Source: a virus. From it: a stretch of DNA of 64,000 nt. The DNA is taken from positions 24,413-88,412 of the IMG/VR virus record IMGVR_UViG_3300032271_000867; one strand, given 5' to 3'. The position numbers and the translations under genes were made by a program. Positions 3,717 through 59,752 of the stretch are shown here, in pieces; positions within the stretch are counted from its first letter, which is position 1, and every line of letters begins with the position of its first letter. The notes under the pieces are model-generated. The model was not told where the DNA came from and did no database searches. It worked only from the letters and a program-made list of their open reading frames with translations.

Positions 3717-5291
3717 TTATTGTTGGTTTAAATTGTTGCTCAAAAAGTCTATCAGACTTCCTGCAGTAAAATCAATTCCGCCTTTGTCGTTAATTCCGAC
3801 TCCATCAAGTATTGCTCCTGCAACTATTTTCTTTTGATTAAGCATATCATATTGTCTTTGCTCTATTGAATTTTTGATCAGTATGTCTTGAATGGTAATT
3901 GTTGGCCATTCACTTGATGTTCTGTTAATCCTACCATTACGTTGAACAGCAAGTCCGGCAGACCAAGGTTGGTCATAATTTATTAAAAGGTTAGCTTGGG
4001 GTAGATCAACACCATATCCACCAGCATCACTACTAATAAGAACACGAGTATCAATATTAGATTGAAAATCAAGTTTTGCAACTTCTTTTTCTTTGGCATT
4101 CATTTCCCCTGTGTACATTACTGAACTAATACTACTGTCTTTAAACTCCATAAATAATTGAGTTACACTCCACAAATAAGAAGAAAAAATAACTACCTTA
4201 TATTTTGGATCAATGCTTAAATGATCTTTAACATATTGTACTACTGCATCTTGCTTTACTTTTTTAGTTATGTCTTCTAATTTATCACCTAAAGAAGAGA
4301 TATAGGCACTTCCTTTTCCCGTATGATTGTCAAACATTTTTTTACTAACTTGTAAAATTGCCGGGTTACTGCACAGCATCCGTAAGGCTGTAATTCTTGA
4401 CATTATTTGTCCCCGCATCTCGTTAGCCGGGTCATTTAGGTCTCTAGATTGGCCGTAATGGGCAGCAATGCTAAAGTTTGTTCCGAATGTATCTCTGGCT
4501 TCTATTAGCAGCTCTATAAGGTCAGAGACAATAAAGTTGTATAGTTTTTGACTCTTTGAATCTAATGAGATTAATAGTGGTTCACGATAAACTGCATCCG
4601 GTAAGTAAGGTTTTACATCTTCATCATTTTGAGATTTGCGTACTGAGTACGAAGAAACTTTAGAATGTAAAGTTGGAAGATTAACATATCTATCTACTCC
4701 TCCAAATTGATTACGAATAATAAATGCTTTATCAAATAGATCAAATCTACCTAAAATTTTTGGATCTACAAACTGCATGATTGAGTAGATTTCTTCAGGT
4801 CTGCCATTCTCAACTGGTGTGCCGGTCAGTGCAAATCTTACTGGAATCTTTTTAGAAAGTTCTTTTACTTTTTTAGCACGTTTGGCTTTGAATCCTTTAA
4901 TAGCAGTTGCTTCATCACAAATGATGGCATCAAAGTCATGTTGTTTAATTATGTCCCAATCATTTACTATCTGTTCGTAGTTCATGATTACATAATCATT
5001 TGATATAAGTTGTTGATATTGTTCTTTACGTTGCTTTGGATTTCCATCTATAACAATTGATGACGAATCACTGAATTTAACAATTTCTTTTTGCCATTGA
5101 TATTTAAGTGAAGAAAGGCATAGGACAAGGACCGTTTTGGTCATCTTGCCTATGCCTCTTAGTTCTTCAATAGCTGCAATTGTCATAGGTGTTTTACCTA
5201 AACCCATTTCATATGCAACCAAAATATTCTTTTGTTTTACCATTTTTTCAACGGCTTCAACTTGGTAAGGTTTCAACGTTCCTTTGAACAT
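3717..5291 (-). CDS. SNF2-family helicase / DNA translocase
   Basis: Superfamily 2 ATPase of the SNF2 type, 524 aa. Motifs in order: Walker A GLGKT (residues 30-34), motif II DEAT (126-129), motif III LTGTPVEN, then the second RecA-like lobe with VIFSSYLW, LISSDAGGYGVDLP, and motif VI QRNGRINR. The start chosen is ATG at 5291, with GGAGA eight bases upstream, inside the 3' end of the primase gene (35-nt overlap). A GTG 20 codons earlier is possible but lacks a good ribosome site. Such proteins are frequent in phage replication clusters and probably remodel forks or branched DNA, as T4 UvsW does. The specific role is inferred. Confidence 0.88.
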   Translation of the reverse strand: MFKGTLKPYQVEAVEKMVKQKNILVAYEMGLGKTPMTIAAIEELRGIGKMTKTVLVLCLSSLKYQWQKEIVKFSDSSSIVIDGNPKQRKEQYQQLISNDYVIMNYEQIVNDWDIIKQHDFDAIICDEATAIKGFKAKRAKKVKELSKKIPVRFALTGTPVENGRPEEIYSIMQFVDPKILGRFDLFDKAFIIRNQFGGVDRYVNLPTLHSKVSSYSVRKSQNDEDVKPYLPDAVYREPLLISLDSKSQKLYNFIVSDLIELLIEARDTFGTNFSIAAHYGQSRDLNDPANEMRGQIMSRITALRMLCSNPAILQVSKKMFDNHTGKGSAYISSLGDKLEDITKKVKQDAVVQYVKDHLSIDPKYKVVIFSSYLWSVTQLFMEFKDSSISSVMYTGEMNAKEKEVAKLDFQSNIDTRVLISSDAGGYGVDLPQANLLINYDQPWSAGLAVQRNGRINRTSSEWPTITIQDILIKNSIEQRQYDMLNQKKIVAGAILDGVGINDKGGIDFTAGSLIDFLSNNLNQQ

Positions 5292-57649: not shown

Positions 57650-57677
57650 TTTATTGTTTAGTTTAGCAATAATGCAG

Positions 57678-57758
57678 TACTCGAAACGGGACTTGAACCC
57701 GTATGCCCAGGGCGGTTGATTTTAAGTCAACTGTGTATACCGATTCCACCATTCGAGC
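57678..57758 (-). tRNA. tRNA-Leu (anticodon UAA)
   Basis: Minus strand 81 nt. Acceptor arms GCTCGAA and TTCGAGT pair (first pair G-U). The anticodon arm GTTGA-CTTAAAA-TCAAC reads UAA. A long variable arm (CGCCCTGGGCATA) marks class II Leu tRNA, and the T-arm is ACGGG-TTCAAGT-CCCGT. CCA is not encoded. Leu UUA is a favoured codon in this AT-rich DNA, so the gene probably supports late translation. Confidence 0.92.
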
Positions 57759-57764
57759 TTAAAA

Positions 57765-58211
57765 CTAGTCTAGCTCATCAATATAAAGCTCTGTAACATC
57801 TAGACCTTCACTGATAGCTACTCTTCTAAAAAAACTTCGATTAGCATGACAATTAGCACATACTAATTCGCATTTAGCCATTTCAGAAATTACAACATCT
57901 ATATCTTTTGTGTAAGATTTAAAATTTGCTATATTAAATAGTTTAGTTACACCAGGTAAATGATCAAACTGCATTATCCAATAACTGTATTTATTTCCAC
58001 AATCTGCACAAGGATTATTTTCTTTATACTCTCTTACCATTTCTCTAATGGCAGTTTCTAAAGTTTTAGTTCTGACCTTAGTTTTATCAGGTTGATCTTC
58101 TCCTAAATAATAAGAAATAGTACTTTTAGAACAACCTAATTTTGCTTTTATTTGACTATAAGTTAACCCTTGTTCTCTGAGTTCTCTAATTGACTTTTCT
58201 AGTTCAGTCAT
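57765..58211 (-). CDS. HNH endonuclease with N-terminal HTH
   Basis: 148 aa. The first 40 residues are an HTH (LREQGLTYSQIKAKLGCSKS, TISYYL). The HNH core shows C68/C71 (CADC), MQFDH (D83-H84), and CELVCANCHANR (C118/C121/H122). Resembles stand-alone phage nucleases with built-in DNA recognition, often mobile. Situated directly next to tRNA-Leu, a usual landing site for such elements. Confidence 0.85.
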   Translation of the reverse strand: MTELEKSIRELREQGLTYSQIKAKLGCSKSTISYYLGEDQPDKTKVRTKTLETAIREMVREYKENNPCADCGNKYSYWIMQFDHLPGVTKLFNIANFKSYTKDIDVVISEMAKCELVCANCHANRSFFRRVAISEGLDVTELYIDELD

Positions 58212-58213
58212 TA

Positions 58214-58315
58214 TTAAACTCTGACTAGCCTGCGCTTTGCTGGATCAAACATCTTTGGATGTTTTTTACTTGCCTTACCATTATTACGGTCTGAATTACG
58301 GGCACCTTTTGCCAT
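58214..58315 (-). CDS. 33-aa basic peptide
   Basis: MAKGARNSDRNNGKASKKHP then KMFDPAKRRLVRV, very basic. ATG has AAGGAG seven bases upstream, a strong site, and the stop is 2 nt before the HNH ATG. Similar in style to the small basic proteins at 25-26 kb. Too short for family assignment. Confidence 0.55.
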   Translation of the reverse strand: MAKGARNSDRNNGKASKKHPKMFDPAKRRLVRV

Positions 58316-58377
58316 GTTTATTTCTCCTTAATGTTGCAGGAATACACCTGCTACATATAAGTATACAGTAAAAATTG

Positions 58378-58450
58378 CTGACCTACCTGGATTCGAACCA
58401 GGAACCTTAGAGTTAACAGCTCTCTGCGATGCCAATTTCGCCATAGGTCA
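58378..58450 (-). tRNA. tRNA-Asn (anticodon GUU)
   Basis: Minus strand 73 nt. Acceptor TGACCTA/TAGGTCA pairs perfectly; T-arm CCTGG-TTCGAAT-CCAGG; anticodon loop CTGTTAA gives GUU, with four Watson-Crick pairs plus a G-A in the stem. CCA is not encoded. It begins 8 nt behind the endonuclease VII gene. Confidence 0.92.
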
Positions 58451-58458
58451 ATATTAAG

Positions 58459-58890
58459 TTATGAGATATATTCTAGTAGGTTTTTTATGTTTTGTGTACT
58501 ATCTTTTAAAATACCTAACGCAACATTGCATGGAAAACATAGCACACCACGAACACAACTTCCACAAGAAAAACGTTTATTACAGCAAGAATGATCATGA
58601 TCAATGTTAACTGCTTCATTTACTTTACAGGCATGGCAGTTACCCTCGTATAAAGCTAATAACTCATTGTACTTTTCTTCAGTTAGTTTATGTCGTTTCC
58701 AGTTAGTTCTGTAAGTAGAACTCATTTGTACTTTTTCAGCGTATTTTTCAGGATTATCTTTATAATACTGAGAAACATAAGTTGAATGACATTTTTTACA
58801 AATGTTTCTTCGTCCATCTACATATTTTGCACCTTTGGCAAACAATTCTAGATCTTTATCTTCGTTGCATTTATTACACGTTTTTATCAT
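58459..58890 (-). CDS. Recombination endonuclease VII
   Basis: 143 aa. The core is ALYEGNCHACKV (C85/C88), NIDHDH (96-100), VRGVLCFPCNVALG (C118/C121, N122) and a C-terminal helix, the endonuclease VII family (T4 gp49 type) that resolves branched DNA before packaging. An extra N-terminal zinc ribbon is present (C5/C8 and C31/C34). It follows the tmRNA-like RNA and is followed by tRNA-Asn. Confidence 0.88.
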   Translation of the reverse strand: MIKTCNKCNEDKDLELFAKGAKYVDGRRNICKKCHSTYVSQYYKDNPEKYAEKVQMSSTYRTNWKRHKLTEEKYNELLALYEGNCHACKVNEAVNIDHDHSCCNKRFSCGSCVRGVLCFPCNVALGILKDSTQNIKNLLEYIS

Positions 58891-58909: not shown

Positions 58910-58989
58910 TGGACCTGGGGCGAATTGAACGCCCGTCTTACTTCCTCCGACATGCGGCTTTAAAAAGCAATCGACACCATTTCAGGCCC
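58910..58989 (-). ncRNA. tmRNA-like RNA of minimal size (tRNA-like domain only)
   Basis: Minus strand, 80 nt. Acceptor GGGCCTG pairs with CAGGTCC (one G-U). The 5' end GGGCCTGAAATGGTGTCGAT matches the tmRNA 5' consensus (GGGGnTGAAAnGGTnTCGA), and there is no D-stem. A T-arm GGGCG-TTCAATT-CGCCC precedes the acceptor. Only about 36 nt replace the normal 280-nt body; TTGCTT can pair with AAGTAA as a mini-P2. No tRNA anticodon arm could be folded. CCA not encoded. Either a minimal or degenerate tmRNA, or an unusual tRNA-like RNA. Confidence 0.55.
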
Positions 58990-59047: not shown

Positions 59048-59142
59048 TTAATTGATTTTAATGACTTTTGGGCGTTTTTCAATAGGTAGTTCTCGGTTGA
59101 ACTGAACAGTCAACATACCGTTCTCAAGCAGGGCATTGGTTG
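59048..59142 (-). pseudogene. 3' remnant of a second hsp20 gene
   Basis: The minus strand encodes TNALLENGMLTVQFNRELPI then EKRPKVIKIN and TAA, matching the last 31 codons of the neighbouring hsp20 (TNALLENGMLTVQFNKNLPE...). No start or remaining domain exists; between the two lies about 85 nt without homology (59143-59227), with a short GTGGG/CCCAC dyad. It looks like a leftover after gene replacement or duplication. Confidence 0.75.
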
Positions 59143-59227: not shown

Positions 59228-59752
59228 TTAGTGAATGTCAATAACCTTCGGCTTTTTTTCTTCAGGAAGGTTTTTGTTGAACTGAACTGTAAGCATGCCG
59301 TTTTCAAGCAGGGCATTGGTGACTTCCCAATACTCAGCTACAGCAAGTTCTAGTTTAAAATCACGAGTAGCAATTCCTTGGTAAACAACTTCGCCAAGTT
59401 GCTTATCTTTTTTCTTACCTTCAATAGTAAGAACAGAATCTTGAACAGTTACAGTGATTTCTTTTTTGTAAAAACCAGCCACAGCTACATTAAGTAGGTT
59501 AGTACCATCTTCCAACGACACAATGTCGTATGGAGGATAAGAGGGGCGATTGTTAGTTACTTCTTTGAGTTGTTCAAGAAGGGGAAACCAGCCAATAGAT
59601 AGGCGGTCTAGGCGGGGAAACAAGTCAGCAATAGTGACTGGTCTCGGCACAGATGGGGTTTTCCACTGGTCATAGTAATCCAAACCATGTGGATTCTTTT
59701 TCTTTTGGGTTTTTGACCAAGGGTTTTGTGGGTCAAATGGTTGTTCGTGCAT
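59228..59752 (-). CDS. hsp20: Small heat-shock protein (Hsp20/alpha-crystallin)
   Basis: 174 aa. Alpha-crystallin domain residues about 75-174: YDIVSLEDGTNLLNVAVAGF, KKEITVTVQDSVLTIEGKKK, GIATRDFKLELAVAEYWEVT and LENGMLTVQFNKNLP. The usual C-terminal IxI is replaced by KPKVIDIH. The first 60 residues are a disordered Pro-rich tail. AAGGAG lies seven bases before ATG. Phage Hsp20s occur in T4-like cyanophages and help protect or fold virion proteins. Its leader carries direct repeats (59773-59842). Confidence 0.9.
   Translation of the reverse strand: MHEQPFDPQNPWSKTQKKKNPHGLDYYDQWKTPSVPRPVTIADLFPRLDRLSIGWFPLLEQLKEVTNNRPSYPPYDIVSLEDGTNLLNVAVAGFYKKEITVTVQDSVLTIEGKKKDKQLGEVVYQGIATRDFKLELAVAEYWEVTNALLENGMLTVQFNKNLPEEKKPKVIDIH

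What the first reader, a model, noticed from the sequence alone, without database searches (positions are those of the whole stretch)
58910..58989. tmRNA-like RNA without the mRNA body
The 80-nt RNA has the tmRNA 5' consensus, no D-stem, a tmRNA-type T-arm and closed acceptor stem, but the usual ~280-nt body is replaced by 36 nt. TTGCTT and AAGTAA could form a very short P2. Within the loop an Ala-initiated mini-frame (GCC GCA TGT CGG AGG AAG TAA) is present, so it could still tag with a few residues, although this part is speculation. If it is charged, it could free stalled ribosomes or compete with host tmRNA. A permuted or degenerate tmRNA is the alternative.
Basis: partly seen in the sequence, partly recalled or inferred. 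Interest (0 to 1): 0.7.

Follow-up and report, generated by a model that had tools for sequence, protein, structure and literature searches.

The report
Phage tmRNA stripped of its message
A bacterial virus encodes an 80-letter RNA that looks exactly like the tRNA half of the cell's ribosome-rescue RNA (tmRNA) but carries no message to read; the same stripped-down RNA is conserved in hundreds of other phages, where it probably hijacks or jams the host's rescue of stalled ribosomes.

Summary
Minus strand 58989-58910 encodes an 80-nt RNA: a 7-bp acceptor stem with G3-U70 and A73 (alanine identity), a stemless tmRNA-type D-loop, a 9-bp P2 capped by a bulged hairpin, and a perfect T-arm. It has no tag frame and no pseudoknots. 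A record-wide tmRNA model search scores it 51.3 bits, above cut-off; no tRNA model or ARAGORN call covers it. It is not a one-off or a remnant. Pattern scans of viral contigs and genomes gave 172 distinct RNAs (118 below 85% identity). G3-U70 is kept in 171/172 (118/118) and A73 in all, although neither was searched for, while P2, T-stem and acceptor pairs 4-7 vary by compensatory change. Cultured Streptomyces phages (BRock, LuckySocke, GiJojo, pSt2308, Alone3) carry it unannotated, and are also the window terminase's closest relatives. The records tested carry no SmpB and no full tmRNA. The kind is known: mycobacteriophage DS6A has a 'TLD-only' tmRNA, and a similar RNA inhibits tmRNA. New here are its breadth, its conserved apical hairpin and the invariant alanine identity, which simple SmpB titration does not explain. 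Best guess: an alanine-charged competitor of host tmRNA.

The parts
58910..58989 (-). TLD-only (message-less) tmRNA-like RNA, 80 nt without CCA; discriminator A73 is base 58910
   Evidence: RF00023 51.3 bits over cut-off; fold; family model R1 77.9 bits; homologues
58983..58989 (-). acceptor stem 5' strand GGGCCTG, with G3
   Evidence: G3-U70 171/172 in the family
58971..58982 (-). stemless tmRNA-type D-loop AAATGGTGTCGA
   Evidence: GGNNTCGA in 22/24 members found with a bait that did not include it
58962..58970 (-). P2 5' strand TTGCTTTTT
58947..58961 (-). apical element AAAG-CCG-CATGT-CGG: A-rich bulge and hairpin, counterpart of the conserved AAARCCGCAYGCGGA
58938..58946 (-).
58918..58934 (-). 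T-arm GGGCG TTCAATT CGCCC
58911..58917 (-). acceptor stem 3' strand CAGGTCC, with U70
   Evidence: G3-U70 171/172 and A73 172/172 in the family
59228..59752 (-). hsp20 gene upstream; conserved neighbour in relatives
   Evidence: PF00011; same-strand hsp20 ends about 60 nt upstream of the RNA in 14 loci
58459..58890 (-). endonuclease VII-type gene starting 20 nt downstream
   Evidence: PF02945
58377..58450 (-). tRNA-Asn(GTT), same strand
57677..57758 (-). tRNA-Leu(TAA), same strand

Best explanation
It is a TLD-only tmRNA: the tRNA-like domain of tmRNA closed off by a short P2 hairpin, with no message and no pseudoknots. Inferred working: host RNase P and CCA-adding enzyme mature it, host AlaRS charges it with alanine through G3-U70 and A73, and host SmpB (the phage seems to bring none) binds its elbow. 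The Ala-RNA-SmpB-EF-Tu complex then competes with host tmRNA for SmpB and for ribosomes stalled at the end of an mRNA. With no message to switch to, it cannot direct the usual tag, so trans-translation is damped during infection. Shown: structure, conservation, alanine identity elements, absence of a tag frame, absence of phage SmpB or full tmRNA in the records tested. Inferred: maturation, charging, SmpB binding, competition. Confidence in the identity (a TLD-only tmRNA) is about 0.97; the figure below is for the function.
For: Structure and covariation. G3-U70 171/172, 118/118 diverse, A73 172/172, neither part of the search pattern. With the apical hairpin as bait instead of the D-loop, 24/24 have a 7/7 acceptor, G3-U70 and A73, and 22/24 have GGNNTCGA, the tmRNA-type D-loop. 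No SmpB in 25 records and no full-length tmRNA: every strong RF00023 match in those records is about 80-100 nt. Literature: SmpB binds the TLD elbow, and D-/T-loop contact is needed for it (PMC3968760). [quoted passage not shown] A DS6A-like TLD-only RNA strongly inhibits tmRNA (PMC4131195; PMC11915505).
Against: The reported inhibition did not need charging, whereas G3-U70 and A73 are invariant here; titration of SmpB alone does not explain that. The conserved apical element has no role in this model. Expression, charging and SmpB binding were not tested.
Confidence: 0.5

Rival explanations
1. Active message-free rescue: Ala-RNA-SmpB enters stalled ribosomes, accepts the nascent chain and adds one or more alanines without a template, leaving alanine-tailed chains.
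For: SmpB with a TLD fragment supports poly-alanine synthesis in vitro without mRNA (PMC3929946, citing Shimizu and Ueda 2006). Invariant alanine identity fits a role in which the alanine is used. Message-less mitochondrial tmRNA is kept along with SmpB (PMC11915505).
Against: No in-vivo evidence; without a stop codon the route to ribosome release is unclear; the known in-vivo effect of such an RNA is inhibition.
Confidence: 0.22
2. Alanine donor outside rescue: Ala-RNA feeds a non-ribosomal aminoacyl transferase or another phage enzyme.
For: Strict alanine identity without an anticodon.
Against: The flanking genes differ across the family, with no single constant partner. The tmRNA D-loop is conserved, which a simple donor would not need.
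Confidence: 0.08
3. Decayed tmRNA remnant or attachment-site copy with no function.
For: Phages often integrate at tRNA or tmRNA genes and carry the gene's 3' half (PMC10865867).
Against: Attachment sites carry one end only, whereas both ends pair and covary here; P2 is kept by compensatory change in 118 diverse members; a tyrosine integrase was found in 2 of 25 records and not in this one.
Confidence: 0.02
4. Unusual tRNA lacking a D-arm that decodes a codon.
For: It lies near tRNA genes here and within tRNA arrays in Streptomyces phages.
Against: RF00005 and ARAGORN do not call it; no 5-bp/7-nt anticodon arm; the apical loop varies in length and sequence; only 28 of 125 loci with 1-kb flanks have a tRNA within 1 kb.
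Confidence: 0.02

Closest known systems
TLD-only tmRNA of mycobacteriophage DS6A (tmID 11587; PMC4131195, PMC11915505)
   [quoted passage not shown] no tag frame.
   Different: DS6A was reported as a single phage case; its sequence was not found in the collections here, so a shared apical hairpin could not be checked. Here over 200 viral contigs, several cultured Streptomyces phages and a Stenotrophomonas phage carry such an RNA.
Standard tmRNA (ssrA, RF00023)
   Same: Acceptor with G3-U70 and A73, stemless D-loop GGNTTCGAC, P2 beginning straight after it, GGAC, T-arm.
   Different: No tag reading frame, no pseudoknots, no long P2; 80 nt in place of about 350.
Message-less tmRNAs of mitochondria (RF02544) and of Mallomonadaceae plastids (about 65 bp) (PMC11915505)
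   Same: tRNA-like domain without a coding sequence.
   Different: Organellar; the mitochondrial genes are usually permuted.
Engineered TLD fragments used for structures such as 2CZJ (PMC3929946)
   Same: Nearly the same cut: 5' 25 nt and 3' 34 nt joined by a short loop.
   Different: Artificial; the natural RNAs mostly end in a conserved bulged hairpin, not a UUCG loop.

Membership tests
TLD-only (CDS-less) tmRNA | tRNA-like domain of tmRNA in standard (unpermuted) order | tested here: met
   RF00023 51.3 bits, model 1-374; fold
TLD-only (CDS-less) tmRNA | alanine identity G3-U70 and A73 | tested here: met
   present here; 171/172 and 172/172 in the family
TLD-only (CDS-less) tmRNA | no tag reading frame | tested here: met
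   the stretch between D-loop and T-arm forms P2 and a hairpin; in-frame stop in only 32/73 homologues
TLD-only (CDS-less) tmRNA | inhibits host tmRNA as the DS6A-like RNA does | not testable with these tools
   needs a tagging assay
TLD-only (CDS-less) tmRNA | sequence kinship with DS6A | not tested
   DS6A record not held under the two accessions tried
Standard tmRNA (full function) | tag-encoding message with resume and stop codons | tested here: not met
Standard tmRNA (full function) | pseudoknots and long P2 | tested here: not met
Standard tmRNA (full function) | SmpB binding and ribosome entry | not testable with these tools
   D-loop consensus kept, binding not tested
Permuted tmRNA (RF04321) | acceptor piece followed by intervening segment and coding piece | tested here: not met
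   20.1 bits over the first 87 positions only, cut-off 47; a gene starts 20 nt downstream
tRNA | tRNA model / ARAGORN call with D-arm and anticodon arm | tested here: not met

The most novel reading that the evidence does not exclude
A phage-made, message-free trans-translation: the RNA, charged with alanine and carried by host SmpB and EF-Tu, adds untemplated alanine to chains on stalled ribosomes, a phage counterpart of alanine tailing in ribosome quality control, with the conserved apical hairpin steering what happens next.
Probability: 0.15. Interest if true: 0.88.

Novelty: new member of a known kind. Interest (0 to 1): 0.64.

Why it matters
Message-less phage tmRNA was known from one mycobacteriophage; the tmRNA database of 97,179 sequences lists nine standard-order CDS-less forms in all (PMC11915505). 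Here it is a large, structurally conserved phage RNA family that ARAGORN, and the window-wide Rfam search at gathering thresholds, passed over. That points to host ribosome rescue as a recurrent target of phages. Invariant alanine identity suggests that the charged form matters, which sits badly with the simple 'titrates SmpB' view. Cultured phages on laboratory Streptomyces carry it, so the question can be tested directly.

Tried and rejected
Mini-tag frame: not conserved. Permuted tmRNA: rejected. tRNA: rejected. Attachment-site remnant: rejected. Plus-strand Plastid-ycf2 match (19.5 bits, cut-off 65.7): it is the complement of the acceptor and T-arm. Pattern hits in Synechococcus genomes (L202, L206, L207) fail the acceptor test and are probably ordinary permuted tmRNA 3' pieces (inference). 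BLAST of the window RNA against phages gave only weak matches, mostly canonical tmRNA T-arms, and against plasmids none; a consensus-like probe was needed to find cultured phages. DS6A could not be fetched. The MAFFT alignment A1 misplaces the acceptor 5' strand because the D-loop length varies (3-6 nt), so pair counts for that helix come from anchored counting. Promoter/terminator scan: no more than chance. Single-sequence folding is not a reliable witness for every homologue: P2 is missed in the minimum-energy fold of L275 and the T-arm in L205.

Full report
Observation. The window lies in an 88,412-base virus record that encodes a phage-type terminase and an Mtd-type protein. On the minus strand, 58989 to 58910, is an 80-nt RNA gene: acceptor GGGCCTG/CAGGTCC, D-loop AAATGGTGTCGA without a stem, P2 TTGCTTTTT/AGGAAGTAA (9 bp with G-U pairs), bulge AAAG, hairpin CCG-CATGT-CGG, GAC, and T-arm GGGCG-TTCAATT-CGCCC, with discriminator A. 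The minimum-energy fold is this structure. Pair 3-70 is G-U and base 73 is A, the alanine identity elements; [quoted passage not shown] No CCA is encoded.

Models. The window-wide Rfam search at gathering thresholds and ARAGORN report only two tRNAs. A targeted search with the standard tmRNA model RF00023 gives 51.3 bits, above its cut-off of 47, spanning model positions 1-374 with 83 nt; the tRNA model finds only the two ordinary tRNAs. The permuted-tmRNA model reaches 20 bits on its first 87 positions, and a gene starts 20 nt downstream, so there is no coding piece.

Family. Of 261 matches, 223 have an acceptor of at least 6/7 and a T-stem of at least 4/5 pairs; these are 172 distinct RNAs, mostly 77-80 nt, or 118 below 85% identity. 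The pattern did not include the acceptor or the discriminator, yet G3-U70 is present in 171 of 172 and A73 in all, while pairs 4-7 of the same stem take four or more pair types. P2 positions 1-6 pair in 107-117 of 118 sequences, against shuffle means of 47-90. On a MAFFT alignment of 71 members the covariation score is 0.593, against 0.164 in shuffles and 0.106-0.215 with slid partners; on 27 distinct members fitted to the model it is 0.739 against 0.193 (that alignment leans towards the structure).

Independent bait. Searching with the apical motif AAAGCCGCAYGCGGA instead of the D-loop gave 41 contigs. All 24 distinct RNAs have a 7/7 acceptor, G3-U70 and A73, and 22 have GGNNTCGA. So the tmRNA-type D-loop and the alanine identity are properties of the family, not of the search.

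No message. The loop sequence varies with the hairpin. This is a message-less RNA.

A covariance model (R1) separates the family from its relatives. Members left out of the training set score 51-80 bits; canonical phage tmRNAs reach at most 29 and tRNA-like places at most 26 in the annotated loci tested, with up to 35 bits for other places in whole genomes. In a sample of 394 genomes of the class of Cellulosimicrobium, 4 have a match at E of 1e-11 or better, the Cellulosimicrobium genome itself among them.

Who carries it. Cultured phages carry it without annotation as an RNA: Streptomyces phages LuckySocke, GiJojo (where a hypothetical protein was called over it), pSt2308, BRock, Alone3 and, more divergent, Riptide; and Stenotrophomonas virus Jojan60. 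A Pseudonocardia plasmid has one too. In LuckySocke it sits between tRNA-Val and tRNA-Ser. The window terminase's best matches are BRock, LuckySocke, Alone3, pSt2308 and GiJojo at about 50% identity, the same phages, so the window phage belongs to that wider lineage and probably infects an actinobacterium (inference). Across that lineage the stems have changed by compensation while G3-U70 is unchanged; the apical element is AAAGCCGCAYGCGGA in all the Streptomyces phages and AAAGCCGCATGTCGGA in the window.

Surroundings. In the window the order on the minus strand is hsp20, this RNA, an endonuclease VII-type gene, tRNA-Asn, a gene with a weak HTH match, tRNA-Leu. A same-strand hsp20 ends about 60 nt upstream of the RNA in 14 loci. 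Elsewhere the neighbours are diverse, capsid- and portal-like genes among them by eye, and only 28 of 125 loci with 1-kb flanks have a tRNA within 1 kb. No fixed protein partner was seen. SmpB was not found in any of 25 viral records, nor a full-length tmRNA; many of these records may be incomplete. A tyrosine integrase was found in 2 of 25 and not in this record.

Mechanism. SmpB binds the elbow of the tmRNA tRNA-like domain and stands in for the missing anticodon arm (PMC3968760; PMC3929946). Engineered fragments of the same extent bind SmpB; [quoted passage not shown] and with SmpB a TLD fragment makes poly-alanine without mRNA (PMC3929946). A DS6A-like RNA strongly inhibits tmRNA whether or not it can be charged, perhaps by titrating SmpB (PMC4131195). 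The likeliest role is therefore competition with host tmRNA. The invariant alanine identity suggests that the charged form does the work, either as an EF-Tu-delivered competitor on the ribosome or by adding alanine to the nascent chain. Which of the two is open.

Novelty. The kind is known from DS6A, listed as TLD only; 'standard, no CDS' forms number nine in 97,179. Further literature searches in the held library found no description of a widespread phage family, but most subscription papers and preprints are not covered. The new content is the size and spread of the family, its conserved apical hairpin, the strict alanine identity, the absence of phage SmpB in the records tested, and its presence in phages of laboratory hosts.

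Noticed in passing
window 59048-59140 and 59228-59320: A 93-nt direct repeat (74% identical) duplicates the 3' end of hsp20 between hsp20 and the RNA; the second copy still reads as an hsp20 C-terminus ending in a stop (ALLENGMLTVQFNRELPIEKRPKVIKIN*).
   Followed up: partly
window 57765-58890: Two small genes, one endonuclease VII-type and one with a weak helix-turn-helix match, alternate with the tmRNA-like RNA, tRNA-Asn and tRNA-Leu, as if mobile endonuclease genes had entered an RNA gene cluster.
   Followed up: no
L308 1499-1741: Streptomyces phage GiJojo gene 44 ('hypothetical protein') is annotated directly over the tmRNA-like RNA and is probably a spurious call.
   Followed up: partly
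L120 6175-6254 and L147 (same record, IMGVR_UViG_3300027749_000047): One 136-kb virus record carries two different copies of the RNA about 67 kb apart.
   Followed up: no
L083, L106, L168, L097: A subgroup lacks the apical CC/GG hairpin; its P2 closes directly on a loop such as TAACATTAATTTAG.
   Followed up: no
loci, cluster represented by L175: In 18 loci a gene that looks by eye like a major capsid protein (not scanned) starts about 120 nt downstream of the RNA on the same strand.
   Followed up: no
L311 about 4001-4079: A 27-kb Pseudonocardia plasmid with a tyrosine recombinase carries the RNA in an intergenic gap.
   Followed up: partly
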